From positions 1 to 37,602 of the forward strand of contig NZ_JAPCID010000069.1 of the NCBI RefSeq assembly GCF_027587175.1: a stretch of DNA of 37,602 bases. Reading direction: 5' to 3'. This document shows positions 18,045 through 36,972 of the stretch, one piece after another. Source of the stretch: Solirubrobacter deserti (lineage in GTDB: Bacteria > Actinomycetota > Thermoleophilia > Solirubrobacterales > Solirubrobacteraceae). Position numbers and translations under genes: made by a program. Within the stretch, counting starts at the first letter, position 1; every line of letters starts with the position of its first letter. The notes below the pieces were generated by a model that was given only the letters and a program-made list of their open reading frames with translations, made no database searches and had not been told where the DNA came from.

Positions 18045-18065
18045 TCATCAACCCTATCTATGAAT
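18043..18065. promoter_or_regulatory. LysR box ATTCAT-N11-ATGAAT
   Basis: A perfect 6-bp inverted repeat, ATTCAT (18043-18048) and ATGAAT (18060-18065), is separated by exactly 11 bp. It fits the T-N11-A rule for LysR-type regulators. It overlaps the start codon of the LysR gene and lies 55 bp before the dioxygenase-like start, as expected for an autoregulated divergent pair. Confidence 0.65.
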
Positions 18066-18119
18066 GGGCACGAAAGTTGGCATTGGACGTATCCGGGCGG
18101 CGCGACGAAGCTCCACGAC

Positions 18120-18632: not shown

Positions 18633-18647
18633 AAGCGAGCCGCCCCG

Positions 18648-20776: not shown

Positions 20777-20814
20777 CGGCTACTCGCGAAGTCTCGAACC
20801 GCGAGCCGATGCAC
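20771..20814 (-). promoter_or_regulatory. Inverted repeat covering the OLD gene start codon
   Basis: GTGCATCGGCT (20771-20781) and AGCCGATGCAC (20804-20814) are perfect 11-bp complements. CGCG repeats inside each arm could extend the stem with a small bulge. The start codon of the OLD gene (20774-20776) is inside the downstream arm of the transcript. Read as RNA this buries the AUG; read as DNA it is a 44-bp dyad that could bind a repressor. An in-frame stop two codons upstream rules out an earlier start. Confidence 0.7.
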
Positions 20815-20867
20815 GTCAATATCGGCATCTATATAGAGTCAGTCACTCAGGTAGATAGGTGTCAGAG

Positions 20868-22019
20868 TCAGCAGCCGTAGCCGTCGCGGTCGCGGTCGAG
20901 CTCGTACACGTCAGGTCCCACCACGCGGACGGTGCGGCCGATGTAATCAGGGCCGTTGCCGTCCCCTCGACGGCAGTCGTAGTCGGAGGAGTCGGCTCTC
21001 AGGCACGCGCCCGCGTAGCTGGGGTGGCAGTCCGGCGAGGCCAGCGAGGCCACCCCGTACACGAGCGCCGGCGTGAGCACGATCGCCGTGCCGGCGACGC
21101 TCCACATGCGCTTCGGGGTCAGTCCGCGTCGCCGTGCCCGCGGCTCGCGCGTGACGCCGGCCGTCCGCGGGATCGCCTGGTGCGGTCGCTCGAGTGCGTC
21201 GTGGAGGTCGGCGACGAGCGTGCGGGCGTCGCCGTGACGCTTCGCGGGGTCGAGCGAGAGCGCACGCAGGAGCACGCGGTCCACGGCGGGGTTCAGGCGC
21301 TGGTTGCGCCGTGAAGGCGCCACCGGCTCGGCGTCCGCCGGCTGCGTGAGCCCACGCGGCAGCGTGCCGGTCGCCGCGCGATAGGCGATCGCGGCCAGCG
21401 CCCAGCGGTCGCTGGCGGCGGTCGCCGCCCCGTACATGAGGGTCTCCGGTGCCATGTACGCGGGCGTGCCGGGTACCCGGCCCGTGCCGGTCACGGTCGA
21501 GACGTCGTCCGCGAGCGCGATCCCGAAGTCGGTCAGCAGCCCGCGCCCGTGCTCGGCGTCGATGAGGATGTTCGCCGGCTTGAGGTCGCGATGGACGACA
21601 CCCCGGGCGTGGCAGCAGTCGAGGCCTTCGGCCACGCCGGCCAGCAGCTCCAGGACGTCCTCGAACGCGGGTCGCCGCTCGCTGAGGAAGCGGTCCAGCG
21701 AGCCGCCCGGCACGTAGCGCATCGAGAAGTAGCGCCGGCCCTGGTGCTCGCCGCGCGCGTAGATGGGCACGACGTTCGGGTGCTCGACGGACGCCATGGC
21801 GTCCACCTCGCGCTCGAACCGGCGCATCAGGTCCGGCGCCAGGGCGAGCTCCGGCCGGATGAACTTCCGTGCGACCTTGCGCTTCGGTGACCGCTCGGCG
21901 GCCAGGAAGACCTCGCCGAACCCGCCGCCGCCGAGGCGCGCCTCGATCCGGTAGCCGTCGACGACGTCGCCCGGCGAGAACCGGGAGGGAAGGTCGTTCT
22001 CAGCCGCGACCGCGCACAT
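20868..22019 (-). CDS. Transmembrane Ser/Thr protein kinase with Excalibur-like extracellular domain
   Basis: 383-residue Hanks-type kinase. The glycine loop is LGGGGFGEVF (29-38), followed by Lys52 (VARKF), the helix-C Glu71, HRDLKPAN with catalytic Asp145, DFG at 164-166, and GTPAYMAPE. After a basic linker a single membrane helix follows (TAIVLTPALVYGVASLA). The outer domain reads DCHPSYAGACL, DYDCRRGDG, then RVVGPDVYELDRDRDGYGC. This resembles Excalibur calcium-binding modules with a DxDxDG loop and four Cys, but it stops before the final Glu. It may sense calcium or the cell surface and signal inward. PASTA repeats are absent. An FHA protein 4 kb away could be a phospho-reader; this is speculative. 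Confidence 0.88.
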   Translation of the reverse strand: MCAVAAENDLPSRFSPGDVVDGYRIEARLGGGGFGEVFLAAERSPKRKVARKFIRPELALAPDLMRRFEREVDAMASVEHPNVVPIYARGEHQGRRYFSMRYVPGGSLDRFLSERRPAFEDVLELLAGVAEGLDCCHARGVVHRDLKPANILIDAEHGRGLLTDFGIALADDVSTVTGTGRVPGTPAYMAPETLMYGAATAASDRWALAAIAYRAATGTLPRGLTQPADAEPVAPSRRNQRLNPAVDRVLLRALSLDPAKRHGDARTLVADLHDALERPHQAIPRTAGVTREPRARRRGLTPKRMWSVAGTAIVLTPALVYGVASLASPDCHPSYAGACLRADSSDYDCRRGDGNGPDYIGRTVRVVGPDVYELDRDRDGYGC

Positions 22020-22059
22020 TGCGCAGGGAACCTACAGCGCAAACGCGCCGCAAAGCAAG

Positions 22060-22087
22060 CGCGCCCCGGCCGAATGGCCAGGGCGCG
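22060..22087 (-). terminator. Hairpin terminator after the small secreted peptide gene
   Basis: CGCGCCCCGGCC (22060-22071) and GGCCAGGGCGCG (22076-22087) form a 12-bp stem with one G-U-type mismatch around the GAAT loop. On the minus strand the hairpin lies 12 bp after the stop at 22099 and is followed by a weak T-rich stretch (CTTGCTTTGC). It would separate the peptide gene from the kinase gene downstream. Confidence 0.6.
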
Positions 22088-22098
22088 GTGCAGCGCTT

Positions 22099-22284
22099 CT
22101 AGTGCCCGGACGCCTGGCGCTGGGCGTCGCAGACGACGGGATCGAAGATCGGCGTCCCGTCGGCGGCGTAGCACAGCGGCGTCGGCGGCGGGGGCGGATC
22201 CTCGTCGGCGAAGGCCGGCGCGGCCGCGCCGGCCAGCGTCACGGCCGTCAGGAGGGTGAGCAGGGACTTGGTGGAACGTGACAC
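22099..22284 (-). CDS. Small secreted peptide with two cysteines
   Basis: 61-residue product. The signal peptide is clear: basic start MSRSTK, hydrophobic SLLTLLTAVTLAGAAA, and cleavage site PAFA before DEDPPPPP. The mature peptide is about 34 residues: a Pro-rich opening, then LCYAADGTPIFDPVVCDAQR with Cys separated by 13 residues, likely a disulphide loop. The start GTG 22284 has GGGGAGGA four bases upstream. A hairpin terminator follows. The family is not recognised. The strong ribosome site plus terminator argue that it is a real gene rather than a chance ORF. Confidence 0.72.
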   Translation of the reverse strand: MSRSTKSLLTLLTAVTLAGAAAPAFADEDPPPPPTPLCYAADGTPIFDPVVCDAQRQASGH

Positions 22285-22303
22285 AGAGTCCTCCCCTGTG
22301 AAT

Positions 22304-22326
22304 GAGTTGACTTACACTCACAACTC
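22304..22326. promoter_or_regulatory. Inverted repeat GAGTTG-N11-CAACTC
   Basis: Six-base inverted repeat at 22304-22309 and 22321-22326 with 11-bp spacing. It sits in the 162-bp gap between the secreted peptide gene (minus) and the LuxR-type gene (plus), 20 bp from the peptide start. This stretch is clearly richer in A/T than its surroundings. The repeat could be an operator. No regulator is assigned. Confidence 0.3.
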
Positions 22327-22432
22327 TCAGTCGGTTTCCGTCAGCCGCCATCACTGACTCAGGTAAGTGACTATTACGGTTACGGAGGGGCGACCACCGT
22401 GAAGGGAGGGGTGTCATGTCGGCGCGGTGCGC

Positions 22433-22438
22433 TATAGG
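22433..22438 (+). promoter_or_regulatory. Possible -10 element of the LuxR-type gene
   Basis: TATAGG lies eight bases before GTG 22447, and GTGTCA at 22411-22416 is a poor -35 at 16-bp spacing. A transcript from here would begin on or next to the GTG, giving a leaderless mRNA. There is no Shine-Dalgarno sequence directly ahead of the GTG, consistent with this. Confidence 0.3.
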
Positions 22439-22446
22439 GTGCGGGT

Positions 22447-25305
22447 GTGCCCGAGCGGATCTCGAGCCCGCGCCTGATCGGCCGCGAGGCCCAGCTCGAC
22501 CGGCTGGGCCGGCTCTATGACCGCGCGGCCGCGGGCGAGTTCACCCTGGCGCTGATCAAGGGCGACGCGGGCATCGGCAAGTCGCGCCTGGTGCGGGAGC
22601 TTCAGACGCCCGGCGCGCTGACGCTGCGCGGCAGCTGCTTCCCGATCGCCGGCGAAGAGGCGCCCTACGGGCCTTTGGTCGCCGCGCTGCGCGACGTGCC
22701 CGGCGATCGGCTCGCCGCCGCGGCCGACGGGCTGCCCGAGGCGCTGGTCGCCGAGCTGGCGTCCCTGCTTCCTGCACTCGGTGGCCACGCAGTGGCCGGT
22801 CGTGACAGCTCGCGCGGCGCCCAGGGCCGCCAGTACGAGTACCTGCTGGAGCTGCTCGCGCGGCTGGCCGAAGAGACGCCGGTCGTCCTGGTCATCGAGG
22901 ACATCCACTGGGCCGACCCCTCCACGCTGGACTTCCTGTCTTTCGTAGCCCGCAACGCGCGCCGCGAACGGGTCCTGCTCGTCGCCACGCACCGTCTGCA
23001 CGACGGCCGCGACCTGCAGGCGCTCGAGCGCTACGTCGACCAGCTCGAGCGCTGCGCCGCCGTCGAGGCGATCGCCCTCGGCCCACTCGACGAGGCCCAG
23101 GTCAGCCAGCAGATCGAGGCGATCCTGCTGCGTGCCCCCGACGTGGCCGTCACCCGCCGCATCGCCGCGCGCACGCAGGGCAACCCGTTCTACGTCGAGG
23201 AGCTGATCGCCCACGGCGGCACGGCCGAGGCGCCCCTGGCGCCCGGGCACGCCGCCACGCTGCTCGAGCGCGTCCGCGCGCTCAGCCCCGAGACCCAGCA
23301 CGTCGTGCAGGTGCTCGCCGCCTTCGGGCGCGCGGTCGAGCACGACCTGCTGGCGCGCGCGGCCGCCGTGGCCGAGCCCGAGCTGTCCCGGCGGCTGCGC
23401 AGCGCGGTCGACTCCCACGTCGTCGAGGCCGGCGGCGCGATGCTGACGTTCCGCCACGCGCTCACACGCGAAGCGGTCTACGAGGCGCTGCTGCCGGGGG
23501 AGCGCCAGCGCCTGCACCGCGCCGTGGCGGGCGCGCTGCGCGAGCGCCGGGACCTCACCGACGCCGCCGAGCTGGCGGTTCAATGGCGGGCGGCCGGCGA
23601 TAGCGCGGCGGCGCTCGAGGCGTCGCTGGAAGCGGCGCGGGCCGCCAGCGGCGTCTATGCCTACAGCGAGGCGGTCGAGCACTACACGGCCGCCGTCTCC
23701 CTCTGGAGCGCGCCCGGCGCGCCTGAGCTCGACCACGCCGCGATCCTGCTCGACGCCGCCGACGCGGCCTACCGGGCGGGCGCGGACGAGCTGCCGATCC
23801 AGTGGTGCGAGCTCGGGCTGGCGACGCTCGGTGAGAACCCGGACCCGCACCGGGCCGCGGCGTTCTTCGAGCGGCTCGGCCGCTTCCAAGACCATCACCT
23901 CGACAAGTCGCTGACCATCTACAGCGAGGCGCTGGAACGCCTCGACGACAGCGCCAGCGCCGAGCGCGCCCGCCTGCTCAGCAACGAGAGCCTCACGCTG
24001 ACGCTGAACGTGCGCTGGGACGAGGCGCGCGAGCGGGCCGAACGCGCGCTCGCGATCGCGCAGCGGGCGGGCGCCGACGCCGAGGAGGGCTTCGCGCGCT
24101 CGGTGCTCGGGCTCGTGCTCGCCTACCTCGGTGACTTCGAGGCGGCCGAGCAACACCTCGGCATCGCGCGGCGCATCGGCGAGGCGCTCGGGCGGCCCGA
24201 GGATGTCACCGGCGCCTACGTCCACCTCGGTGAGATCCGCCGGCTGCGGGGCGACCTCCCCGGCGCCTTGGAGGTCATGGCCGCCGGGATCGACGCGTCG
24301 CGACGGCTCGGCGTCGAAGCCTCCTACGGCCGCTACTTCGCACTCAACGCCGCCGAGGACGAGTTCGAGCTCGGCCACTGGGACGCGGCGCAGGCACGGA
24401 TCGACCGGCTCGAGGGCGCGTCGCTGACCTGGACCGAGACGTTGCTGCGCCTGACCGTCTCCGGCCAGCTCGCGGCGGGGCGCGGCGAGTTCGAGCGGGC
24501 GCGGGCCTGGCTCGACGAGGCGAGCGGGCAGTTGCGTGAGTCCTCGGCGACGGAGTGGACGGCCTACGTGGCGGCGTGCGTGGTCGAGCTGCAGCTGACG
24601 GCGGGCGAGCCCGACCAGGCACTGGCGACCGCCGTGGCCGAGCTCGAGCGCGTGCGCGGGCGCGAGGAGCGGCTCTACACGCCGGCGCTGGTGAGCACGG
24701 CGGTGCGCGCGGCGGCGGACGCGGGCGCGCCGGACGAGGCCGAGCGCCTCACCGCCTGGCTGGCGGCGTTCCTCGATGAAGCGTCGCCGCCGATCGCCCT
24801 CGCGCATCTGGCGGGCGCGCGTGCGGAGTCCGCCCGTGCGCGCGGCGCCTCGTTCGCCGATGAGTGGGCCGGGGTCGCCGGCCACTGGGACCGGCTCGTC
24901 CACCCCTACCGGGCCGCGTACGCCCGCGTGCGGGAGGCCGAGGCCCGGCTCGCCGACCGTGAGCGCGAGGAGGCGGCGCACGCGCTCTCGAAGGCGCTCG
25001 ACGTCGCCAACGCGCTCGGCGCGCTCCCGCTCAAGGCGTGGGCCGAGAGCCTCGCCACCCGCAAGCGCCTGCGCCGCGCCGTCGTCGGCCAGCTCGAGTC
25101 CGCCGGCCCCGAGGAGCGGCTGACGCCGCGCGAGCTGGAGGTGCTCAGGCTCGTCGCCGAAGGTCGCACCAACCGGCAGATCGGCGCGGCGCTGCACATC
25201 ACCGAGGGCACGGCCGCGCTGCACGTCTCGAAGATCCTCGGCAAGCTCGACGTCAGCACGCGCGGCCAGGCCGCCGCGCTCGTCCACCGCTCCGGTCCGG
25301 CCTGA
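22447..25305 (+). CDS. Large ATP-binding LuxR-family (LAL) transcriptional regulator
   Basis: 952-residue LAL-type regulator. The N-terminal AAA/STAND ATPase begins LIGREAQLDRL, with Walker A GDAGIGKS at 39-46 and Walker B VLVIEDIHWADPSTLDFL near 150-170. The middle (about 380-860) is helical TPR-like, for example YAYSEAVEHYTAAVSLW and ERAERALAIAQRAGADAEEG. The C-terminal LuxR helix-turn-helix reads RLTPRELEVLRLVAEGRTNR, then QIGAALHITEGTAALHVSKI. Such proteins bind ATP and an inducer through the TPR region, then activate nearby genes. The target is not evident, as the gene is monocistronic-looking. GTG 22447 is used because the RLIGRE block follows at once. Confidence 0.9.
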   Translation: MPERISSPRLIGREAQLDRLGRLYDRAAAGEFTLALIKGDAGIGKSRLVRELQTPGALTLRGSCFPIAGEEAPYGPLVAALRDVPGDRLAAAADGLPEALVAELASLLPALGGHAVAGRDSSRGAQGRQYEYLLELLARLAEETPVVLVIEDIHWADPSTLDFLSFVARNARRERVLLVATHRLHDGRDLQALERYVDQLERCAAVEAIALGPLDEAQVSQQIEAILLRAPDVAVTRRIAARTQGNPFYVEELIAHGGTAEAPLAPGHAATLLERVRALSPETQHVVQVLAAFGRAVEHDLLARAAAVAEPELSRRLRSAVDSHVVEAGGAMLTFRHALTREAVYEALLPGERQRLHRAVAGALRERRDLTDAAELAVQWRAAGDSAAALEASLEAARAASGVYAYSEAVEHYTAAVSLWSAPGAPELDHAAILLDAADAAYRAGADELPIQWCELGLATLGENPDPHRAAAFFERLGRFQDHHLDKSLTIYSEALERLDDSASAERARLLSNESLTLTLNVRWDEARERAERALAIAQRAGADAEEGFARSVLGLVLAYLGDFEAAEQHLGIARRIGEALGRPEDVTGAYVHLGEIRRLRGDLPGALEVMAAGIDASRRLGVEASYGRYFALNAAEDEFELGHWDAAQARIDRLEGASLTWTETLLRLTVSGQLAAGRGEFERARAWLDEASGQLRESSATEWTAYVAACVVELQLTAGEPDQALATAVAELERVRGREERLYTPALVSTAVRAAADAGAPDEAERLTAWLAAFLDEASPPIALAHLAGARAESARARGASFADEWAGVAGHWDRLVHPYRAAYARVREAEARLADREREEAAHALSKALDVANALGALPLKAWAESLATRKRLRRAVVGQLESAGPEERLTPRELEVLRLVAEGRTNRQIGAALHITEGTAALHVSKILGKLDVSTRGQAAALVHRSGPA

Positions 25306-25380
25306 CCTATATGGCTCCCGCGGACAGATATGCAGTTCCTGCGATGACGCGCGGCGGGGCTTGGCCTAGCTTCGGCCAGC

Positions 25381-25905
25381 ATGAGCCTGCCGGCCGCGAT
25401 CGAGTGCGGCGACGCGCTGATCGTCTTCGAGGGCCCGCGCCGGATCCGTCACCGCACCCCGGAGCCCCTGGACCTGTGGCCGGACGCGCGGGAGGCCGAG
25501 GACGTCCGGGCCCGCATCGAGCATGGGCGGCCGATTCTCGTGATCCTCGGCGGCCCGCAGGCCGAGGCGACGCTGCTCAGCGAGCGGTTCGCTGAGGCGC
25601 CGCCCGCGCTGGCCCGGTTCGCGCACGCGATCGCGCGCGAGCTCGCGCCGCTCCCCGTTCCCGCGCTGGACTGGCTGCCCCACGACCTACGCGACCACGG
25701 CCTGCGCTTCCTGCGCGCCAGCGTGTCGCACGCACGCCGCACGCCCGCACTGCTGCGCCCGGCGCTGTCCCTCGACGACCGCGCCGCGGCCTGGCCGCAC
25801 GTGCGCTTCGCGCATCTCTCCGGAACCGGCGCCACCGCGCACGAGCTGTCCCCGGTGGTGGCCTACGCGTTCGCGGACCTCACCCCGCCGCGGCTGACGC
25901 GCTAG
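25381..25905 (+). CDS. Hypothetical protein, unknown family
   Basis: 174-residue soluble protein not recognised. It is rich in Ala, Arg and Pro. PILVILGGPQAEATLLSERF suggests a strand-loop-helix, and RFLRASVSHARRTPALLRPA is strongly basic. No signal peptide or membrane helix is seen. Third-position GC is high throughout, supporting coding. A short inverted repeat (TGGCC at 25362-25366, GGCCA at 25374-25378) lies just before ATG 25381. No ribosome site is obvious. The stop overlaps the convergent FHA gene by four bases. The preceding region has TATATG at 25309-25314 as a loose -10 candidate. Confidence 0.6.
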   Translation: MSLPAAIECGDALIVFEGPRRIRHRTPEPLDLWPDAREAEDVRARIEHGRPILVILGGPQAEATLLSERFAEAPPALARFAHAIARELAPLPVPALDWLPHDLRDHGLRFLRASVSHARRTPALLRPALSLDDRAAAWPHVRFAHLSGTGATAHELSPVVAYAFADLTPPRLTR

Positions 25906-26639
25906 CCGTAGTCGCCGGCGTCGAGCAGGTGCCGCTGCGCGAGCGCGACGAGCTGGAGGCGGTTCTGCTCCTTGGTCCCGCGCAGGTCGTAGAGCCGGTA
26001 GAGGTCGCTGAGCAGGTCGCTCACGCGTTCCGGGCCGATCGGCGGCTGCAGCCGGGCCGCGATCTGCGCGTTGCTCGGCGTCGCCACGAGCTCGCCCGGG
26101 GCGGCGAAGAACGGCCGGCACAGCTCCACCAGCACCTCCCGCTGGCGAGCGGTGGGCTGCGGCAGCTCGTCGCGGTCCGACGTGCGCCCCTCGTCGAGCG
26201 GGACGCCGCCGACCAGGAGGAAGCGCTCGCCCGCGAGGCGCACGTCATGCTCGCCGGCGTCCAGCTGCGCCGGCCGCGCGGGCATCCGCGGGGCGAGCAT
26301 CCACGATCCGGTTTCGACCGCGACGCCCTGGCGCAGCCGCACGGACCGGTGCTCGGTGCCGTGCTTGGACGCGGTGTCCAGCAGGTACACGCAGACCGCG
26401 GGCGGGTCGCCGTACGTGCGCAGCGTGATCTCCGCGTGCTCGCGCGAGACCTTCCGGTGCGCCGGGAACGAGACCGTGCCGTCGACCCGTCCGACCGTGG
26501 CCGGCGCGCGCGGTGTCAGGGCGTGGATCCGCAGGACGCCGTCGGCGTCGCGCCAGGCGACGTACGGCTGGCCGCCGGCCACCTGCGCGATGCGGGCGAG
26601 CTCCGCGGCACCGTCCGGGCGAACCGGTTCACCAGGCAC
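25902..26639 (-). CDS. FHA-domain protein with C-terminal helix-turn-helix-like region
   Basis: About 245 residues. The forkhead-associated domain (about 45-110) carries the phosphothreonine-binding residues: VGRVDG (Gly50-Arg51), KVSREHAEI (Ser65, Arg66, His68) and TASKHGTEH (Ser91 to Thr95). The C-terminal part, from PTARQREVLVELCRPFF through SNAQIAARLQPPIGPERVSD to LYDLRG, looks like a winged or LuxR-like helix-turn-helix. It therefore may couple binding of a phosphoprotein to DNA binding. GTG 26639 is preferred. The frame is open further upstream, but that part reads through a tRNA gene fragment at 26670-26713 and cannot be original coding sequence. A Ser/Thr kinase lies 4 kb away. Confidence 0.82.
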   Translation of the reverse strand: MPGEPVRPDGAAELARIAQVAGGQPYVAWRDADGVLRIHALTPRAPATVGRVDGTVSFPAHRKVSREHAEITLRTYGDPPAVCVYLLDTASKHGTEHRSVRLRQGVAVETGSWMLAPRMPARPAQLDAGEHDVRLAGERFLLVGGVPLDEGRTSDRDELPQPTARQREVLVELCRPFFAAPGELVATPSNAQIAARLQPPIGPERVSDLLSDLYRLYDLRGTKEQNRLQLVALAQRHLLDAGDYG

Positions 26640-26669
26640 GTACGCGATCGGCGCTCGTCGTCTGCACAA

Positions 26670-26713
26670 GCCGGAGATCGGATTCGAACCGACGACCCAC
26701 CGCTTACAAGGCG
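26670..26713 (-). other. 3' half of a tRNA-Thr(UGU) gene (likely att-site remnant)
   Basis: On the minus strand this reads as the anticodon loop CTTGTAA (anticodon TGT at 26706-26708), the 3' anticodon-stem strand GCGG, a variable loop, the T arm with GGTTCGAATCC, and the 3' acceptor strand CTCCGGC (26670-26676). Upstream of the anticodon loop only CGC still pairs. There is no D arm, and no GCCGGAG acceptor 5' strand is present. Integrating elements that use tRNA genes duplicate exactly such 3' portions, leaving a fragment at the far end. No second copy is seen in the window. Confidence 0.75.
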
Positions 26714-26790
26714 CAAGTGCCTGCCGTTCGCAAACACAGTTAACGCCTGGAAAAACGGCGCTTTCACGGCGTTCCGCGGAGGTTGTCGTA

Positions 26791-26816
26791 CCCGCCGATT
26801 TCGCCGAATCGGTGGG
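26791..26816. terminator. Hairpin next to the tRNA fragment
   Basis: CCCGCCGATT (26791-26800) and AATCGGTGGG (26807-26816) pair over 10 bp with one G-U, around a TCGCCG loop. It lies 7 bp beyond the stop of the minus-strand frame ending at 26824 and could terminate it. On the plus strand it is followed by GTTTCTGTC. It may alternatively be an integrase or recombination site, given the tRNA scar 80 bp away. Confidence 0.4.
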
Positions 26817-26823
26817 GTTTCTG

Positions 26824-27183
26824 TCACCCAATTGTCACCGAACGGCGGCCGAGGTCGGCCGCGTGCGAGGAGGACGCGGCGACCGCGTAGTAATCCCGGT
26901 GTGCTCGGTGGAGCCAAGTCGTCCCATCGCAGGTGGACGACCGCGCTGCGCCGAACGACTGTTGGCTGGCGCTGCCGGTGCGGCGCGTGGTGAATGCCGT
27001 GACCCACTCGCACGGCACTGACGGCGTCCCGGTGCCGTAGCACGGGGAAGTCCACGAGATGTGCAGGTGCGCGGCGCAGGCGGGGGCGTGGCAGGTCCGT
27101 GGGGAACCAAGGCCGGGGAAGCCCTCGCAGCCGACGAATTGCATCGCCGGGATCAGCGGGCAGACCGGCCGTGTGCCGGCCAA
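26824..27183 (-). pseudogene. Possible truncated gene: Cys-rich C-terminal fragment with HLHISW motif
   Basis: From about 27183 (TTG) to the stop at 26824 this frame has strongly GC-biased third positions, the best coding sign in the gap. It gives about 119 residues, or 106 from ATG 27144. It reads CEGFPGLGSPRTCHAPAC, then HLHISWTSPCYGTG and VPCEWVTAFTT. The HLHISW sequence resembles the HxH metal strand in M15/M74-like peptidoglycan peptidases, followed by a Cys-rich tail. No signal peptide, N-terminal metal ligands or good ribosome site are present. I infer the 3' remnant of a secreted peptidase gene; a small intact gene of unknown function is the alternative. Confidence 0.35.
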
Positions 27184-27264
27184 TCGACTTACTTTGAGTA
27201 CGCGCGGTGCGCGTGGTGATGTCGCCGGCTCCGTATCGTCTGGAGTCGGGGAGTCCAATCCGCA

Positions 27265-27522
27265 ATGATCTCGTATGTGAACACAGCCATGTGTCCTCAA
27301 TGTGGCGGCACGGACCATCGGCCGGTCGCCGGCGGTTTCGTTGACTGCGTGAGCCGAGTTTTCACGGGATTCGTCCCAAAGACGTTCAACGGCAGCGCCT
27401 TTGCCAACCCCGCAGGTCCGTTGATCAGCGAATGCGGTAACCGGTTCTACTCAGATCACGATCTGACGCCGTTCCTCGGGTTCTCTGGCCCCGCTCGCGG
27501 AACGGGTTCACCGATGACATAG
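27265..27522 (+). CDS. Small Cys-rich (zinc-ribbon-like) protein
   Basis: 85-residue ORF. MCPQCGGTDHRPVAGGFVDC gives a CxxC knuckle and a later Cys; SECGNRF supplies a fourth. The pattern suggests a small zinc ribbon, though the last spacing is long. GGGGAG at 27248-27253 precedes ATG 27265 by 11 bp. A second ATG at 27289 starts directly at MCPQCGG. The base composition is less GC-rich than in neighbouring genes, consistent with acquired DNA next to the tRNA scar. Family and function are unknown. Confidence 0.5.
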   Translation: MISYVNTAMCPQCGGTDHRPVAGGFVDCVSRVFTGFVPKTFNGSAFANPAGPLISECGNRFYSDHDLTPFLGFSGPARGTGSPMT

Positions 27523-27548
27523 CCCGGACGAGCCGTCATGGACCGCCG

Positions 27549-27569
27549 GCACCTGTCAGGTGCGACAAT
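27549..27569 (+). promoter_or_regulatory. Palindrome and -10 element ahead of the 27578 gene
   Basis: GCACCTG-T-CAGGTGC (27549-27563) is a perfect 7-bp dyad around one base. It is directly followed by GACAAT (27564-27569), a -10-like hexamer nine bases from GTG 27578. A repressor on the dyad would block the promoter. No Shine-Dalgarno is visible, so the message may be leaderless. Confidence 0.45.
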
Positions 27570-27577
27570 GCGAGTAC

Positions 27578-28330
27578 GTGGCCGAGAATCTGACTGCTGC
27601 GGAGCTCTACGCCAAGGCCGCTGAGCTGTTCCGCGACGACCAGGAAGCACTGCTCGAGCTGATGCACGCCCAGCTCGAGTCGATCGAGGCGCGCGAGCCG
27701 AACGGGCACGACGCGGAGAGCTGCCGGCTGGCGATGCTCGCGGCGGCTCCGGTCGGCGCGCAGGTCGGGCTTTGGCGGGCGCGGGCGCTCGCCCGGTTCG
27801 GGTCCGTCGGTTGGCTCGAGGGCGTCGCGATGATGATCATGAGCGACGCGTTTCGCCAGCTCAGCGTGGTCAACGACGACTACGTCCGGGGCCGCACGCT
27901 GGACCGCATGCAGATGTCGGAGGAGGCACTGCAGATGCTGCGAGAGCTTCGGCACTTCACCGCGGGCGAGCGGCGCTTCGACTTCGGCCCCACGCCCGCA
28001 CTGGTCGCACGCGTCCTGCCCGAGAAGTCCGGCTTCATGCTGACCGTCGCCGGTCGGCTCGACGAGGCGCGTGCCAGCTACGAACGCGCGCTGGCCGAGA
28101 CGAAGGGCGATGAGCGCGGCACCATCAAGGTGCAGGCGGGGCTCGAGGTCGTCGGCTACCTCCAAGCGCTGGCCGACGGCGCGCAGACCGAGCCGTTCGC
28201 CACCGCGACCGCCGATCTCGCCGAGCGGGCGGCAGCGGCGGGCCAGCCCGACATCGCGCGCGACGCCGCGCACAATGCCGAAGTCATGCGCCACCGCGGC
28301 CGCGACCTCGCGCCCTACGAGATCCTCTGA
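27578..28330 (+). CDS. Hypothetical helical (TPR-like) protein
   Basis: About 250 residues from GTG 27578; an in-frame start at 27560 lies inside the upstream palindrome. The protein is almost entirely helical and soluble: LTAAELYAKAAELFRDDQEA at the start, and GRLDEARASYERALAETKGD near 175, which is a good single TPR-like hairpin. DLAERAAAAGQPDIARDAAH lies near the end. No catalytic motif is recognised. It is alone on the plus strand between the tRNA scar and the long minus-strand cluster. Its 3' end overlaps the last gene of that cluster by 16 bases. Confidence 0.65.
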   Translation: MAENLTAAELYAKAAELFRDDQEALLELMHAQLESIEAREPNGHDAESCRLAMLAAAPVGAQVGLWRARALARFGSVGWLEGVAMMIMSDAFRQLSVVNDDYVRGRTLDRMQMSEEALQMLRELRHFTAGERRFDFGPTPALVARVLPEKSGFMLTVAGRLDEARASYERALAETKGDERGTIKVQAGLEVVGYLQALADGAQTEPFATATADLAERAAAAGQPDIARDAAHNAEVMRHRGRDLAPYEIL

Positions 28331-29052
28331 GGCTGCGGGCTGAGGTCGAGCCGCGCGCCCGCGCGCTCGGCCCAGCGCTGCCAGAAGCGCCGGATCGCGG
28401 CCTGGCGCTCAGCGCTCATGTTGAGCCCGCCGGGGTGGTAGAGCAGCAGCGGCATCTCGACCGTTACATTTTGCAGGTCGGCCAGCAGCCCCGCCTGCTC
28501 GAGGCGGTCGAGCAACGCCGTGATGCCCGCTTCGGAGAGGTCGACGTCGTGGAAGTCGCCGACGGTCTCGCTCGTCTGAATCCCGTCCGAGAGGATCGTC
28601 AGCCGGTCGCCGGGCGCGAGCACGTCCGCGGCGACCACCGCGGCCTCGACGAGCGCGGAGCCGCGGGCTGAGACCGGCGGGTCGGTCATCATCGACTCGA
28701 AGTCCGTCCGCGCGACGTTGACGTTCTCGGTGATCTCGCCCGGCGCGTAGTCGGGGCTGTCGCGGTGCTCCTCGCTGGGCCCGACGGGCGCGAACAGCGG
28801 AGCGCTTTCGGCGATCGGGTCGCCGGCGGCGATGATCAGGCACAGCCGACCGGAGCCGCGCTCGCCGATGTGGCGCGCGAAGGAGGCGAACGCGCCGGCG
28901 TACTCCGAGCGCGCGGTGCGCGTGGAGCCGGAGACGTCGGCGAGCGCGCAGCCCGAGGCCAGCTGCTGCGGTCCGTCGTCGTCGCCACAGCCGGCGGCGG
29001 CGAGCGCGGTGCACAGGAGAGACAGTGCGAGGGTCCTGCGGGTGGGGGTCAT
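28315..29052 (-). CDS. vWA-like lipoprotein
   Basis: 245-residue predicted lipoprotein. The signal MTPTRRTLALSLLCTALAAAGC ends in lipobox AAGC, followed by an acidic spacer. The mature part looks like a von Willebrand A fold: CALADVSGSTRTARSEY gives a DxSxS-type MIDAS metal site. GSALVEAAVVAADVLAPGDR carries the later conserved Ser/Thr position, and LTILSDGIQTSE the next strand with Asp. It would hold a divalent metal and bind a partner outside the membrane. It is the last gene of the minus-strand cluster; its ATG overlaps the previous stop (ATGA, 29049-29052), so it is translationally coupled to the four-TM protein. Confidence 0.75.
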   Translation of the reverse strand: MTPTRRTLALSLLCTALAAAGCGDDDGPQQLASGCALADVSGSTRTARSEYAGAFASFARHIGERGSGRLCLIIAAGDPIAESAPLFAPVGPSEEHRDSPDYAPGEITENVNVARTDFESMMTDPPVSARGSALVEAAVVAADVLAPGDRLTILSDGIQTSETVGDFHDVDLSEAGITALLDRLEQAGLLADLQNVTVEMPLLLYHPGGLNMSAERQAAIRRFWQRWAERAGARLDLSPQPQRIS

Positions 29053-30461
29053 ACGGGCTCCTGATCCAGCCAGCTCCAGCCGGCCGGAGAGTTCCTGGGA
29101 GGGATGGGATCGGGCGCCGGTTCCGGCGCCGGTTCTTCGACGGTCACGAACGGCACGTCCGGTGTGACGGGCTCCGGCTCCGGAGCGGGCGCCGGCGGGT
29201 TGCCGCCGACGACCGTCGGGACGACGACGGGCTGCGTGCTGATCGCACGCTGCGGGTCCAGCAGCGCGAGCGCGATCTCCTGCGCGGAGGGCGGCTCGGG
29301 GAGCGCGAGCTCGAGCGCTCGCACGCCGCGCGCGTGGCAGGCGCGCTCGTACTCGATCCGCAGCCGCGCCGTCAGCTCGGCCGCGGCGGCCGCCTCGCGC
29401 TCGCTGAACGCGCCGACGTGCAGGTCGGACGCGTCGAGCCGGCGCGAAGCCTCCGTGAGCCGCACGCGCTGGGCGGCGACCTTCTCGACCGCCTCGCGCC
29501 GGCGCGTCTCGGCGGCCGCGTCACGCTTGCGCCACCCGCGGTGCGGGTGCGCGACCGTCGCGCGCATCGACAGCGTCATCGCGGCCAGCAGCGCGGCGAG
29601 CGTGATCGGGACGACGAAGGCGAGGTTCGGACCGTCCTGCGCCGCCTCGGCGCTCGGACGAGCGTCACCCTGGGGCGCCGCGGCACCGAATCCGCGGCCC
29701 GTCGTCTGCCCCGCGCTCGCCTGGCTGCGCAGCTGGTCGCGGTAGGCGAGGTTGTCCTCGCGCCCGGTCGCGAGGGCGACGACCGCCCAGCCGACGCACC
29801 CGATCGTCGCCAGCGCCAGCACGACGAGGGTCAACCGCGCGAGCCGCCGGTGGTGGGTCACGAGGCTGCCGAGCCCGAGGCCCCCGAGCTCCGCGCCCGC
29901 GGTCAGCAACAGAGCGAGCGCGGCGGTCACCTGCACGGCGGTGCGCGTGTCCGTCTCCAGCGCCGGGCGCACGGCGGGCGCCGAGAGCTGCACCTCGAGG
30001 AAGAACAGGATCGGGAACATCAGCAGCGCCACGAGCGGGTGCGTGAGGCGCGTGCCGGTGGCCGGCTCGTCCGGCTCCTCCACGCGCAGGCGCTCGCGCT
30101 CGGCCACGGCGCGCCGCTCCGCCTGCTCGGCCAGCTCCACGGCCTCCTGCGCCCCCGCCACGCCGGCCACGGCGGCCGCCCGCTCGGGTACGTGCGCGCG
30201 CAACTCGAGCGCGACGCCCGAGCGGGTCAGCTGCGAGATCTCGTCCGTCAGCGCCGTCGTGACCGGGCCGGGCCCGACCAGGCCGCGCTGGGTGGCGGCG
30301 GCGAGGTCGCGCGCGACGGCGTCCACCCGTGCCGCGCGCGCCGCCGCGCTGTAGCCGCGCTCGGCCGCCGCGGGGTCCTCGCGGTGGCGCGGGAGGCTCG
30401 GCACGAAGTCCTCGCCCACGATCGGGCGGGTGCCCGGCACGACCTGTGGCGGCGCGCTCAC
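29049..30461 (-). CDS. Four-TM membrane protein with coiled coils, unknown
   Basis: 470-residue protein not matched to a family. The N-terminal 140 residues are soluble and helical (AAVAGVAGAQEAVELAEQAE, then RRAVAERERLRVEE). Four membrane helices follow: PLVALLMFPILFFLEVQL, VTAALALLLTAGAELGGLG, LVVLALATIGCVGWAVVALA and VVPITLAALLAAMTLSM. Next is a basic and coiled-coil segment (KRDAAAETRRREAVEKVAAQ), and the C-terminal 90 residues are Pro/Glu-rich and disordered. GTG 30461 overlaps the AAA+ stop (GTGA) and the end overlaps the vWA gene. The layout suggests a membrane platform linking the cytoplasmic ATPase to the external vWA lipoprotein; this is inference. Confidence 0.72.
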   Translation of the reverse strand: MSAPPQVVPGTRPIVGEDFVPSLPRHREDPAAAERGYSAAARAARVDAVARDLAAATQRGLVGPGPVTTALTDEISQLTRSGVALELRAHVPERAAAVAGVAGAQEAVELAEQAERRAVAERERLRVEEPDEPATGTRLTHPLVALLMFPILFFLEVQLSAPAVRPALETDTRTAVQVTAALALLLTAGAELGGLGLGSLVTHHRRLARLTLVVLALATIGCVGWAVVALATGREDNLAYRDQLRSQASAGQTTGRGFGAAAPQGDARPSAEAAQDGPNLAFVVPITLAALLAAMTLSMRATVAHPHRGWRKRDAAAETRRREAVEKVAAQRVRLTEASRRLDASDLHVGAFSEREAAAAAELTARLRIEYERACHARGVRALELALPEPPSAQEIALALLDPQRAISTQPVVVPTVVGGNPPAPAPEPEPVTPDVPFVTVEEPAPEPAPDPIPPRNSPAGWSWLDQEPV

Positions 30462-32263
30462 GAGCGCTCCTCGATCCGCAGCGTGCCGTCGGGCGCCAAG
30501 CCCGCGCGCACGGGCCCGCGGGCTCCGTGGATGAGCGCGGAGCGCAGCGGCCGGACCAGCAGCCGGCGCGTCAGGCGGACCATCTCACGGCCGTCCCAGC
30601 GGCCGTCGGCGTCGAGCTGGGCGTCCAGGGCGGACGCGAGCGACGCGTGATCGATCGAGACGTTCACACCGTGGTCGTCAGCGAAGTTCGTCTCGATGTG
30701 ATGCGCCTGGCGCGCGGCCAGCCCAGGCAGGCTCGCGCGGCGCAGGATGTCGTAGGGCAGCACGTCGCCCGCGATGCGGCTCCACAGCGGGCGCCCGACG
30801 CGCTGCAGGTCCGGGTTCTCGCACAGCGCGCGCTGCGCGATCGCGCGCGTCTCGGCGAGCAGCTCGGCCGTGTCGGGCGGGCCTTCGGGACGCGCCACCA
30901 GGCGCGCGATCTCGCCGTCGCCGAGGTTGCAGGTGAGCAGCACGGCAGCGTGGGCGAAGCTCGCCGTGCGGTTGCGGCCGTCGGTCAGCCGGCCCTCCTC
31001 GATCACCGCCAGCAGCAGCGCGAGCACGTCCGGGTGCGCCTTGTCGATCTCGTCGAGCAGCACCACGCGCGCCGGGCGCTCGGCGAGCGCGTCGGTGATC
31101 GCGCCGCCCGCCTCGTAGCCGACGAAGCCGGGCGGCGCGCCCGTCAGGCGCGCGACGTCGTGCGGGTTGCGCAGCTCGGAGCAGTCGACGCGCAGCAGGT
31201 CGTCGGCGTTGCCCGACAGCGCGCGCTGGAGCGTCCGCGCGGTCTCGGTCTTGCCCACGCCGGGCGGCCCCGGCATCAGGGCGACGAGCCGCGGAGGCCC
31301 GAGCCGCTCGCCGGCGGGGCGCTGCGGGTCGGGCCAGCGCGCGTCGGCCAGCCGCTCGAGCAGCCCGTCGATCGCGGTCGGCTGGCCGATCACGTCACGC
31401 CGCAGGCGCTCGCCGAGGTCGTCCAGAGCGAGCGCCTCGAACGGCGTCCCCTGCGCGTGCCGGCGCGCCAAGCCGCTGAGCAGCGCGCCTGGCCGCCCAA
31501 GCTCGGTCGCCAGGTGGCAGGAGGCCCGCCGCGCCTGCTCGAGGTCGCGCACGGCGCGGCCCGGGAGACCGTCCGCCAGCGTCTGCAGCGCGGCGTCGCG
31601 CTCGTCGCCGGCGAGCGCGGCCGCGCCGTGGAAGCCGCCGCCGAGCAGTCGCAGGACCGCGCCGCGCTCGTCACGCTGGGGCGGCGACGCGTGGACCGTG
31701 CGCACGCCCGGCATGCCCTCGATGAACGGCACGCCCGCCGGCGCGCACACGATCACCGCGTTGCGCGGCGCGACGAAGCCGTCGCGCGCGACGCACTCCG
31801 CCTCGCGCACCGCGGCGCGCAGGATCCCCAGCGCGCGCCGGCCCGTGTCCGTGGACGCGTCGAAGAGCAGGTCGCAGTCCTCGAGCAGGATCGCGCAGCA
31901 GCGCCCGCGCTGGGCGACGAGCGCGCGGATCGCGCGCATGATGTCCAGCGGCGACGCCGCGCCGAGCCGCGGGGCGGCCGACGCTCCGAGTGCGTCGCGA
32001 GCGACTGGCGCGGCCGCGAGCAGCCGCTCGGCCTCCGCGCGGTCGCGCGGATCGATCGGCGTCAGGCCGTCCGCGGCGTCGGCGCTCAGGACGAGCTCCG
32101 CGCCTGCGCCGGTGCGCAGCTCCTCGCGCAAGGCGTGGCGCTCGTCCAAGACGCGCCCGTCGAGCAGCGCCTCGTCGCCGACGTGGCCGCGCAGGACCAC
32201 GTGCGCGCCGTCCGCCACGGCCGCGGCGACCGCGGTCAGATGGGGTGAGGTCAGGGCCGTCAT
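30458..32263 (-). CDS. AAA+ ATPase: P-loop-less first module plus ClpB-like second module
   Basis: 601 residues. The first half (about 20-290) resembles an AAA domain without Walker A: it has a Walker-B-like AILLEDCDLLF (124-134) and a sensor-like NAVIVCAPAG. The second half is a clear Hsp100/ClpB D2-type module: VIGQPTAIDGLLERL, Walker A PGPPGVGKTE (331-340), the substrate pore loop GAPPGFVGYEAGG (375-387), Walker B VLLDEIDKAH (401-410), then EEGRLTDGRNRT and the sensor LLTCNLG. It should thread or remodel a protein partner. ATG 32263 overlaps the previous stop as ATGA. An N-terminal dead module with an active C-terminal one recalls Ycf46-type AAA proteins; that comparison is from memory. 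Confidence 0.85.
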   Translation of the reverse strand: MTALTSPHLTAVAAAVADGAHVVLRGHVGDEALLDGRVLDERHALREELRTGAGAELVLSADAADGLTPIDPRDRAEAERLLAAAPVARDALGASAAPRLGAASPLDIMRAIRALVAQRGRCCAILLEDCDLLFDASTDTGRRALGILRAAVREAECVARDGFVAPRNAVIVCAPAGVPFIEGMPGVRTVHASPPQRDERGAVLRLLGGGFHGAAALAGDERDAALQTLADGLPGRAVRDLEQARRASCHLATELGRPGALLSGLARRHAQGTPFEALALDDLGERLRRDVIGQPTAIDGLLERLADARWPDPQRPAGERLGPPRLVALMPGPPGVGKTETARTLQRALSGNADDLLRVDCSELRNPHDVARLTGAPPGFVGYEAGGAITDALAERPARVVLLDEIDKAHPDVLALLLAVIEEGRLTDGRNRTASFAHAAVLLTCNLGDGEIARLVARPEGPPDTAELLAETRAIAQRALCENPDLQRVGRPLWSRIAGDVLPYDILRRASLPGLAARQAHHIETNFADDHGVNVSIDHASLASALDAQLDADGRWDGREMVRLTRRLLVRPLRSALIHGARGPVRAGLAPDGTLRIEERS

Positions 32264-32940
32264 CGCCCGGCGCCGCGACCCGCGGCGTGCGCCGCCCGGC
32301 CCGCCGGCGCCTCGGGCTCGGCCACCGCGACGTCGATCCCCGCACGTCGCCACGTCTCGGCCATCCGGCGGCTGAGCGCGAGCTCGGCCTCGCAGCCCAC
32401 GAGCGCGCCCGCCGAGGTCTGCAGCTCGTGGACGCCGGAGGCGGCCATGTCGAGCGCGAGCGCGCGGCCGTCCGCGGCGAGGTTGATGTCCACCTGCCCG
32501 CCGGCATAGCTCGTGCGCACTGACAGCGTCCCGTCCGCGGTCCGCCGGGCCTGCGTGCCCGGGACCATGCCCTCGGGCAGCGCGTTCACCAGCCGCGCGA
32601 GCACGAGCTCCTGCTCGGCGCGGGCGAGCGCGGCGCGCTCCTCCGCCTGCTCGAGCGCCTCGACGGCCGCGAGCGCGTCGCGGGTCGCAACGCGCGTCGG
32701 CGCCGACACGGCGCGCGCCAGCGCGGCGTCGGCCGCGGCGCGCAGGCGGGGCGGAGCGCAGCGTCCGACCGCTTCGCGACGGGCGGCGAGCCGCTCCATC
32801 GCGGTGCTCGCCGAGCGGGCGGCGCAGGCGGTCTGGACGCGAACGCGGCGACCGGCGAGGAAGCGGTCGCGGGCGGCGGCGAGCTCCGCCGCGGTGGCGG
32901 CTCCGGCGATGACCCGGAGCGGGATGGTGACTCCACTCAT
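32260..32940 (-). CDS. Hypothetical coiled-coil protein between radical SAM and AAA+ genes
   Basis: 226-residue soluble protein, family not recognised. The first 130 residues are helical and Ala/Arg-rich (AAATAAELAAARDRFLAGRR, then AALARAEQELVLARLVNALP). The second part has strands that could form a small beta sheet: GTLSVRTSYAGGQVDINLAA, then DGRALALDMAASGVHELQTS. Cys occurs in VGCEAELAL. It is translationally coupled to both neighbours (ATGA overlaps at 32937-32940 and 32260-32263), so it probably works with them, perhaps as the radical SAM substrate or an adaptor. In other bacteria, small DUF2997/DUF1257 proteins occupy this place beside AAA and radical SAM genes; homology is not demonstrated. 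Confidence 0.68.
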   Translation of the reverse strand: MSGVTIPLRVIAGAATAAELAAARDRFLAGRRVRVQTACAARSASTAMERLAARREAVGRCAPPRLRAAADAALARAVSAPTRVATRDALAAVEALEQAEERAALARAEQELVLARLVNALPEGMVPGTQARRTADGTLSVRTSYAGGQVDINLAADGRALALDMAASGVHELQTSAGALVGCEAELALSRRMAETWRRAGIDVAVAEPEAPAGRAAHAAGRGAGR

Positions 32941-33593
32941 GACCCGCTGGCCGCCGTCTCGTCCGCGGATGTGACGCCCGCCAGCCAGTCGCGCAGGTGC
33001 GGCAGCGGCGGCACGCCCGTGACCAGCAGCCCGAGCTGCTCGTCGAGCTCGAGCTCGAGGCCGGCGGACACGTCGGGCGTGAGCTGGCCCGCGTGGAGGC
33101 CGCTGAGGTCGATCAGGCGCTGGTTGCGCGACCCGCGCCAGCGCAGGGGCGCGTGCCGGCGCTCGACGTAGGGCCCGTCCACCAGCAGGTCGGCGCGCTC
33201 GAGCAGGGCGCGCTGCGCGGGCGCTCCGGACCGCCGCAGCCACTCGAGGCGGTAGCCCGTGTAGACCATCACCGACAGGCCGGGCCGGCGCGTTCGCAGC
33301 AGGTCGACCACGCGTGTGAGCGCGGCGGCCTGCAGCATCGGCTCGCCGCCGGAGAACGTCACGCCGTCGCCTCCGGCGGCCACCAGCCAGTCGACCAGCG
33401 CTTCGACCGCGTACGGCGTGCCGCCCCGCGGGTGCGTCTCGGCGGCGAGACAGCCGTGACAGCGCAGTTCGCAGCCCTGCACCCAGACCGCGGCGCGGTC
33501 CCCCGGGCCGAGGACGGCGGTCGAGCGCTGCAGGCGCGCGACGTAGACCGTGCCGGGTTCGTCGATCCCGTGATGGCGGGTCACGTGACCCAC
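32937..33593 (-). CDS. Radical SAM activase-like protein (NrdG/PflA type, single domain)
   Basis: 218 residues. The [4Fe-4S] cluster motif is WVQGCELRCHGCLAAE with Cys41, Cys45 and Cys48 (CxxxCxxC). SAM binding is shown by TFSGGEPMLQA (79-89). LVDGPYVERRHAPLRWRGSR matches the conserved C-terminal block of NrdG-type activating enzymes. There is no SPASM or second cluster domain. Activases of this class usually form a glycyl radical on a partner enzyme, but no glycyl radical enzyme or anaerobic ribonucleotide reductase is nearby, so the target is unknown. It overlaps the upstream gene by 13 bases and the downstream one by 4. Confidence 0.85.
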   Translation of the reverse strand: MGHVTRHHGIDEPGTVYVARLQRSTAVLGPGDRAAVWVQGCELRCHGCLAAETHPRGGTPYAVEALVDWLVAAGGDGVTFSGGEPMLQAAALTRVVDLLRTRRPGLSVMVYTGYRLEWLRRSGAPAQRALLERADLLVDGPYVERRHAPLRWRGSRNQRLIDLSGLHAGQLTPDVSAGLELELDEQLGLLVTGVPPLPHLRDWLAGVTSADETAASGS

Positions 33594-34378
33594 TCCGGCC
33601 GGGGCGGCACGACGTCCGGCTGCGCGCCGAAGTCCGCGCTGTCGGCGAGCGCGCCCGGCGCGAGCGCCGCGAACGCGGCGGAGACGTAGGCGGCGAGCAG
33701 CTCACCGGCAAGCGCGCGCTCGGCCGTGGCGAGCTCCGCCGCGCGGGTGGCGATGGTGTGGACGCGCTCGCGCGCCTCGAGCGCCTCCGCGGACGCCTCG
33801 CTCGCCTCGCGGTGAGAGCGGACGGCGGAGCGCCGCAGCGCAGTCAGCCGCGCCGCCTCGGGCGCCGGCGAGCGCTCGCGCGCCGCCACCACGATCAGCG
33901 CCGCGCAGGGCGTGAGCGCGGTCAGCGCGGCCAGCGCCGTCCACAGCGCCGGCGCGTCGGAGCGCAGCGCCAGCACGAGCACGGCCGCACCGGCCAGCCC
34001 GGCGACGGCGATCCCGAGCGCGAGCGCGCGGGCCAGCGCGGCGCGCTCGAGCGGCGGCAGGTCGCGCTCCGTGCTCGGCACGCCCTCCGCGTCGAGTGCG
34101 TGGCGCGCGGCGTCGCGCTCGGTGAGCGCGAGCCGGTGGCGGTGCTCCGCGGCCTCGGCGTGCGCCTCGGCCTCGGTGATCAGCTCTGCCCTGCGGGCGG
34201 CGAGCAGGCCCATGCGCCGCTGGGCGAGCGCGCGGATCTCGTCGGCGAACGGCAGGCGACGACGGAGCAGGTCGTCCTGGTGGCGTACGGCGTCCGCGCG
34301 GCCGCGCTCCTGGGCGTACGCGCGCAGGTGCGCGTGCTCGGCGGCGGGGGCGAAGGCATCGGGGGTGGCGTCTGACAC
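33581..34378 (-). CDS. Coiled-coil protein with central two-TM hairpin, unknown
   Basis: 265-residue protein with symmetric layout. A long helical N-terminus (LRAYAQERGRADAVRHQDDL through AEAHAEAAEHRHRLAL) is followed by two membrane helices (ALALGIAVAGLAGAAVLVLAL and LWTALAALTALTPCAALIVVAA) and a second helical region (REASEASAEALEARERVHTI). The tail is Pro-rich. GTG 34378 is chosen because GGAGGTGG lies nine bases upstream; a TTG at 34387 directly abuts that site. It overlaps the radical SAM start by 13 bases. No family is recognised. Both coiled coils would lie on one side of the membrane, probably the cytoplasm. Confidence 0.7.
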   Translation of the reverse strand: MSDATPDAFAPAAEHAHLRAYAQERGRADAVRHQDDLLRRRLPFADEIRALAQRRMGLLAARRAELITEAEAHAEAAEHRHRLALTERDAARHALDAEGVPSTERDLPPLERAALARALALGIAVAGLAGAAVLVLALRSDAPALWTALAALTALTPCAALIVVAARERSPAPEAARLTALRRSAVRSHREASEASAEALEARERVHTIATRAAELATAERALAGELLAAYVSAAFAALAPGALADSADFGAQPDVVPPRPEWVT

Positions 34379-34411
34379 ACACGCCAACCACCTCCGCCGC
34401 CGCCGGTGTGA

Positions 34412-35740: not shown

Positions 35741-35750
35741 CGCGGCCAGC

Positions 35751-35963: not shown

Positions 35964-36005
35964 GCACGCTCCACGGGCGCCCGCCCCGGCTTACGACACG
36001 GCGGC

Positions 36006-36965: not shown

Positions 36966-36972
36966 GCCCACT

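What the first reader, a model, noticed from the sequence alone, without database searches (positions are those of the whole stretch)
26670..27540. tRNA-Thr 3'-half scar: likely end of an integrated element
A 44-bp fragment from anticodon loop to acceptor end has no 5' half. Tyrosine-integrase elements entering tRNA genes leave such a copy at the end distal to the intact tRNA. From the orientation, inserted DNA would lie at higher coordinates, so the orphan cluster might ride on it. The next 850 bp are less GC-rich and hold a gene remnant and a Cys-rich ORF. No integrase is seen here, so an old, eroded scar is equally possible.
Basis: partly seen in the sequence, partly recalled or inferred. 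Interest (0 to 1): 0.62.

Follow-up and report, generated by a model that had tools for sequence, protein, structure and literature searches.

The report
End of a tRNA-inserted mobile island
The broken tRNA piece marks one end of a 75-kilobase block of mobile DNA that entered a threonine tRNA gene of a soil bacterium and carries an unusual biosynthetic gene cluster plus virus-defence genes; the kind of event is common, this particular family appears undescribed.

Summary
Confirmed. The 45-nt tRNA-Thr(UGU) 3' half (window 26669-26713, minus) is an attR site: one end of a 74.9-kb island in a Solirubrobacter genome. The intact tRNA lies on contig C51, whose end overlaps the window's right end. 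In a same-species assembly both copies sit on one contig, same orientation, 74,910 bp apart. A tyrosine integrase lies between them. An 18-bp motif, probably an integrase arm site, has exactly two exact copies in the genome, one by each end. In relatives G006 and G004 no fragment was found at the tRNA; G006 lacks the element's ParB marker. Joining the flanks restores a complete tRNA gene. S. soli carries a 116-kb, largely colinear relative in the same tRNA gene, with a type IV conjugation module; that module was not found in the window's element, so it is best called an ICE-derived island. The window's orphan cluster lies inside it. Known kind, apparently undescribed family. Most novel open reading: integration swapped the T-stem of the host tRNA.

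The parts
26669..26713 (-). attR: displaced 3' half of tRNA-Thr(UGU), anticodon loop to discriminator base
   Evidence: complete tRNA restored when joined to the 5' half on C51
26822..26839 (-). Arm-type site GGTGACAATTGGGTGACA, probable integrase arm-binding site (role inferred); its only other exact copy in the genome lies beside the intact tRNA, C51:17928-17945
26714..37602 (.). Distal 10.9 kb of the 74.9-kb island; continues on contig C51 (81920 down to 17845)
   Evidence: C51 end overlaps the window end by 52 identical bp, the last 3 bases of C51 not matching; continuous in G001:C378:772943-847852
27002..27177 (-). Remnant of the 3' part of a lytic transglycosylase gene, the most distal backbone gene of this element family
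   Evidence: the same gene is the last shared backbone gene in S. soli and in G002
27265..27522 (+). Cys-rich ORF of 85 aa, no clear relative found
27578..37602 (.). Left part of the orphan cluster (ClpB-type AAA, NrdG/PFL-activase-like radical SAM, Orn/Lys/Arg decarboxylase fold, unknowns); continues on C51 with two radical SAM proteins, carbamoyltransferase, nitroreductases and YcaO
   Evidence: two marker genes found only in this species
17009..26660 (.). Block between conserved chromosome and attR: OLD-like ATPase/TOPRIM, Ser/Thr kinase, LuxR-type ATPase, FHA gene; 20.8-26.66 kb has homologs elsewhere in G002 (part), G003, G005 and G006
8472..17008 (.). Conserved chromosome that lies beside tRNA-Thr(UGU) in relatives
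   Evidence: G003, G004, G005, G006 by DNA; in G002 tested with the 96-aa gene at 16718-17008 only

Best explanation
The fragment is attR, the distal end of a 74.9-kb integrated island in the only tRNA-Thr(UGU) gene found in this Solirubrobacter. A tyrosine integrase (515 aa by my gene call, on C51) recombined an element's attP with the tRNA gene at the anticodon loop. The element brought its own 3' half, which rebuilt an intact tRNA (attL), and pushed the old 3' half to the far end, which is what the window shows. Shown: both att copies, orientation, spacing, an integrase with the expected catalytic residues, matched motifs at both ends, relatives without a fragment, restored tRNA on joining. 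Inferred: exact crossover, role of the motif as an arm site, and past excision or movement. Whether one event or two made the present island is left open (first rival). The backbone is that of an ICE family with a type IV conjugation module in S. soli and G002; the module was not found in this copy, so it would need help to transfer. It carries the orphan cluster and defence genes as cargo.
For: Own assembly: intact tRNA at C51:17771-17844; C51 end overlaps window end (52 identical bp), giving 74,910 bp. G001: fragment 772898-772942 and tRNA 847853-847926 on one contig, same strand, 74,910 bp between, no N runs. Integrase domain at C51:26442-26954 and C378:838743-839255; R304, H421, R424, H447 and Y457 invariant in the 4 aligned sequences (roles recalled). 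18-bp motif: exact matches in 3 of 81 genomes (G000 two, G001 two, G002 one), reversed control none; S. soli was not in that set but has it by its tRNA. S. soli: 92% identical integrase beside tRNA and motif, largely colinear backbone, fragment 116 kb away and 0.45 kb from conserved chromosome. G006 and G004: conserved chromosome, 1.5 and 3.8 kb, then tRNA; no fragment found. ParB marker in 4 of 6 genomes searched, not in G003 or G006. Joined flanks give tRNA-Thr(UGU) in G000 and S. soli.
Against: No read data, circle or transfer was seen. G000 and G001 differ in the window only by one 94-bp patch and are not independent. 9.7 kb of non-syntenic DNA lies between attR and the conserved chromosome, and the integrase ends 8.4 kb from the tRNA instead of beside it as in S. 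soli, so more than one event is likely. The remnant of a second transglycosylase gene near attR also hints at two elements. No second tRNA fragment was found to prove a tandem array. The nearest relatives G003 and G006 have the same T-stem as the intact gene without this ICE's ParB marker, which is not what the simplest donor-recipient story predicts.
Confidence: 0.93

Rival explanations
1. Composite island (a sub-case, not exclusive of the best explanation; its odds are contained in those): attL and attR come from two different integrations at the same tRNA. An older element left attR, the transglycosylase remnant and perhaps the 17.0-26.66 kb block; a later one brought integrase and attL, and the boundary between them was lost.
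For: The transglycosylase remnant is 80.7% identical to the resident gene and 78.4% to the S. soli one, so it is not a recent duplicate. The integrase ends 8.4 kb from the tRNA. The interval between the conserved gene and the tRNA, fragment or (G002) arm motif is 0.45 to 9.7 kb in six genomes, with no tblastx hit at E 1e-6 among the six. G003 has its own fragment 5.5 kb from the same tRNA.
Against: Both ends carry the identical 18-bp motif that has no other exact copy in the genome; no internal tRNA fragment was found.
Confidence: 0.3
2. Old eroded scar unrelated to any present element.
For: The fragment differs from the intact tRNA at several positions.
Against: The differences keep the T-stem paired and resemble the type seen in G002, G004, G034 and the S. 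soli fragment; the joined tRNA is complete; integrase and matched motifs are present.
Confidence: 0.03
3. The tRNA 3' half was copied by ordinary duplication, as may be the case for the array in another genus (G052), without any integrase.
For: G052 holds extra tRNA-Thr 3' halves in tandem among repeated genes, so other routes may exist.
Against: Here the copies flank a 75-kb insert with integrase and matched motifs, and S. soli repeats the pattern.
Confidence: 0.02

Closest known systems
tRNA-integrated genomic islands as catalogued by Islander (PMC4383910; abstract and passages seen)
   Same: Intact tDNA, displaced 3' fragment in the same orientation, integrase between, length within 2-200 kb, anticodon-type crossover (2083 of 3919 islands there)
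   Different: Distal flank is not the chromosome seen there in relatives; T-stem of fragment and intact copy differ
T4SS-type ICEs of Actinobacteria (Ghinet et al. 2011, PMC3218068; passages and section 9 seen)
   Same: S. soli and G002 relatives have an integrase, a TraG-type ATPase and a coupling protein; the Frankia example Fcci3350 also carries a RiPP-type gene and defence genes
   Different: That study looked only for MOBF (TrwC) relaxases; here the coupling protein also carries a Replic_Relax domain. The module was not found in the window's copy
Actinomycete ICEs (AICEs), FtsK/SpoIIIE type (PMC3218068, passages seen)
   Same: Tyrosine integrase and tRNA target; some pSE211-type integrases use tRNA-Thr
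   Different: No FtsK or Rep hit among the 39 of 57 gene calls scanned; the relatives use a T4SS. The study found AICEs only in Actinomycetales

Membership tests
tRNA-integrated genomic island | Intact tRNA plus displaced 3' fragment, same orientation, fragment downstream of the tRNA | tested here: met
tRNA-integrated genomic island | Tyrosine integrase gene between them | tested here: met
tRNA-integrated genomic island | Site without the island in relatives | tested here: met
   G006 and G004: chromosome and tRNA 1.5 and 3.8 kb apart, no fragment found
tRNA-integrated genomic island | Native chromosome directly beyond the distal fragment (not one of Islander's filters) | tested here: not met
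   0.45 kb in S. soli, but here a 9.7-kb block intervenes
ICE (conjugative) | Type IV secretion genes and coupling protein in the element | tested here: not met
   0 of 13 S. soli genes at 22.4-45.4 kb hit the 140-kb region of G001 at E 1e-6; 10 of the 13 are in G002
ICE (conjugative) | Backbone homologous to an ICE | tested here: met
Integrative mobilizable element | Own relaxase or oriT | tested here: inconclusive
   no relaxase among 39 of 57 gene calls scanned with Pfam (recount); oriT not sought
AICE | FtsK/SpoIIIE-type translocase and Rep protein | tested here: inconclusive
   none among 39 of 57 gene calls; the FtsK family itself was not searched
DISARM defence system (cargo) | DrmA, DrmB, DrmC plus methylase or DrmD (definition recalled) | tested here: inconclusive
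   strong DrmA and DrmB hits; DrmC not sought, membership not claimed
Mobile element in practice | Excision or transfer | not testable with these tools
   no reads or experiments

The most novel reading that the evidence does not exclude
Integration rewrites the only tRNA-Thr(UGU) gene found in the host: the element's 3' half carries an ACGGG/CCCGT T-stem, while the displaced halves carry GTCGG/CCGAT here and GTCGG/CCGTC (with a U-U mismatch) in S. soli. T-stem pairs tune EF-Tu binding (recalled), so this ICE family may systematically swap the T-stem of a host tRNA, with a possible effect on translation.
Probability: 0.35. Interest if true: 0.5.

Novelty: new member of a known kind. Interest (0 to 1): 0.36.

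Why it matters
It fixes both ends of the island, so the orphan cluster can be treated as mobile cargo and not as a core trait. It also shows an apparently undescribed ICE family of Solirubrobacter with and without its conjugation genes, and a hot spot at tRNA-Thr(UGU), where G002 has a further island with similar ends but no integrase found. Because the T-stem differs between the displaced and the restored tRNA, the site keeps a record of which half came from where, which makes a tRNA-remodelling effect of integration testable.

Tried and rejected
Second tRNA-Thr 3' fragment at 16.9-26.6 kb, to prove a tandem array: best score 24, within the best scores of 20 single-base shuffles (19-27). Chromosomal inversion as the cause of the displaced 20.8-26.66 kb block: rejected, because gene order on both sides of the tRNA is otherwise that of the relatives. 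Source of the block: its neighbours in G006 were searched in 7 genomes; G000 gave only short weak matches (best E 3.6e-6 and 1.1e-9), so no source locus was found; G001 has an 81% match to part of one neighbour that G000 lacks, so the two assemblies differ in content there. Idea that the block entered by tRNA-Met in G006: that tRNA's 3' end points away from the block, and in G003 the match to its flank is 12 kb from the block. tRNA-Leu 3' fragment at the far end of the G002 ICE: none found except one 17-bp reverse match at E 0.11. Integrase relatives in viral contigs: none, by a scan that reaches close relatives only; in phages and plasmids only partial matches below 60% identity, none covering 80% (99 and 27 records). 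Invertible segment as the cause of the 94-bp patch at 36736-36829: no interval fits. Rfam on 26.0-28.2 kb: only a microRNA match far below its gathering score. Papers: Solirubrobacter with genomic island gave 7, with integrative and conjugative 1, none about such an element by title or abstract start; some searches were seen as listings, with passages from PMC9897764, PMC4383910, PMC3218068 and PMC11104534 and one section of PMC3218068.

Full report
What was checked. The window is the whole contig C91 of a 7.09-Mb draft in 129 contigs. Relatives identify it as Solirubrobacter: the contig of the same-species genome G001 has the length of NZ_QPKJ02000004.1, Solirubrobacter sp. CPCC 204708, and that of G005 the length of a contig of S. 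soli DSM 22325. The fragment is at 26669-26713 on the minus strand and runs from the anticodon loop to the discriminator.

The other end. The only other match to the fragment in the genome is an intact tRNA-Thr(UGU) at C51:17771-17844. The right end of C51, reversed, overlaps the window's right end by 52 identical bases, its last 3 bases not matching, so the two contigs abut and 74,910 bp separate the copies.

Integrase and att arms. A tyrosine integrase lies between the copies; an alignment with three homologs keeps R304, H421, R424, H447 and Y457 (catalytic roles recalled, and in line with the match of residues 294-460 to the Int protein of PDB 6en0). GGTGACAATTGGGTGACA occurs twice in G000, twice in G001, once in G002 and in none of the other 78 of 81 genomes; the reversed control never occurs. 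In G000 one copy starts 84 bp from the tRNA and the other 109 bp from the fragment, in the same direction relative to them. S. soli was not in that set; it has the exact motif beside its tRNA and a weaker one, 4 of 17 bases different, near its far end. More distant integrase homologs (43-47% identical) lie beside tRNA-Gly in L062 and L064 and beside a tRNA-like sequence, which ARAGORN does not call, in L063.

Relatives. In S. soli the 92% identical integrase abuts the tRNA, and a fragment lies 116 kb away, 0.45 kb from the conserved chromosome. Its element and the window's share int, DrmB, DrmA, NERD helicase, C5 methylase, PDDEXK, SNF2, AAA, ParB-like and transglycosylase genes, and a restriction enzyme at only 33% identity, largely in the same order; three small backbone genes lie beside int in S. 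soli but after the methylase here. S. soli adds a TraG-type ATPase, a coupling protein with a Replic_Relax domain and a TrbL-like protein, the last below its Pfam cut-off. None of the 13 genes of that stretch has a match in the 140-kb region of G001. G002 has a largely colinear ICE with 10 of these 13 genes, its first shared gene 1.6 kb from tRNA-Leu. In G006 and G004 the conserved chromosome and the tRNA are 1.5 and 3.8 kb apart and no fragment was found. The ParB marker was found in 4 of 6 genomes, not in G003 or G006; G004 was not in that search.

Cargo. GC and GC3 fall in the defence part (66.6%, 0.80) but not in the biosynthetic cluster (74.0%, 0.92), against flanks of 70.7 and 71.8%. Of 57 gene calls in the island 39 were scanned with Pfam (recount). 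The cluster holds YcaO (SagD-like), a SagB-like dehydrogenase, two variant radical SAM proteins, an NrdG-like radical SAM protein, a carbamoyltransferase and a decarboxylase-fold protein, each below the NCBIfam cut-off of its best model. YcaO was found in 2 of 7 genomes of the genus and a second gene in 2 of 146 of the family, both times G000 and G001. DrmA and DrmB hits are strong, but I did not test for a complete DISARM system.

What does not fit one clean insertion. Window 17.0-26.66 kb was not seen beside the tRNA in the relatives; parts of it have homologs at other places in G002, G003, G005 and G006. The interval between the conserved 96-aa gene and tRNA, fragment or (G002) arm motif is 0.45, 1.5, 3.2, 3.7, 3.8 and 9.7 kb in six genomes, with no tblastx hit at E 1e-6 among the six; the only hits there are two weak ones between the G003 interval and the G002 island, and blastn gave one weak 118-bp match between the G004 interval and the window's island. 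A transglycosylase remnant lies at 27002-27177, and 8.4 kb separates the integrase from the tRNA. I take this as a hot spot with repeated gain and loss; no second fragment was found to prove tandem elements.

The tRNA itself. Joining the 5' half on C51 to the fragment gives a complete tRNA-Thr(UGU), likewise in S. soli, there with one T-stem mismatch. The T-stem is ACGGG/CCCGT in both intact genes, GTCGG/CCGAT in the window's fragment and GTCGG/CCGTC in that of S. soli. Of 31 intact genes examined (G000 and G001 both counted, S. soli not among them), 3 (G002, G004, G034) have the GTCGG/CCGTC form. If the simple model holds, the crossover lies before the T-stem, at the anticodon part. In S. soli the fragment borders the conserved chromosome, so the swap there is well supported; here the intervening block leaves it open, and the near relatives G003 and G006 have the ACGGG form without the ParB marker of this ICE.

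Verdict. Known kind; this family was not seen in the paper searches made.

Noticed in passing
window 36736-36829: 26 mismatches in 94 bp against the same-species assembly G001 while the rest of the 37.6-kb window is identical. Not an inversion; probably a sequencing or assembly error.
   Followed up: partly
L066:15543-18413 (S. soli, G005): A single 956-aa protein carries a coupling-protein ATPase match (TrwB_AAD_bind) and a Replic_Relax domain, as if coupling protein and relaxase were fused; a homolog is in G002. A paper search for such fusions was seen as a listing only.
   Followed up: partly
G002:C1:3902859-3924849 (L071, L034): Island of about 22 kb at tRNA-Thr with arm motifs near both ends (one with a mismatch), but none of the 12 integrase matches of G002 lies in it and no distal tRNA fragment was found: perhaps mobilised in cis by a relative, or decayed.
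   Followed up: partly
L123 (G052:C2:94650-103680): Another genus: at least four extra tRNA-Thr 3' halves in one orientation beside the intact gene, among diverged repeated genes that look by eye like secreted pentapeptide-repeat proteins.
   Followed up: partly
window 20868-26639: Kinase, LuxR-type ATPase and FHA genes form a block found at other chromosomal places in relatives, with an oxidoreductase-like gene beside FHA in G003, G005 and G006 (named by eye).
   Followed up: partly
window 19211-20776: OLD-like ATPase with TOPRIM domain, a possible defence gene, just outside the island.
   Followed up: no
L027:1910-16546 and L028:39-878 (G001): Defence genes in the island: C5 methylase, NgoMIV-like restriction enzyme, DrmA, DrmB, NERD-helicase; DUF3644 (PDC-S19) nearer the tRNA.
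   Followed up: partly
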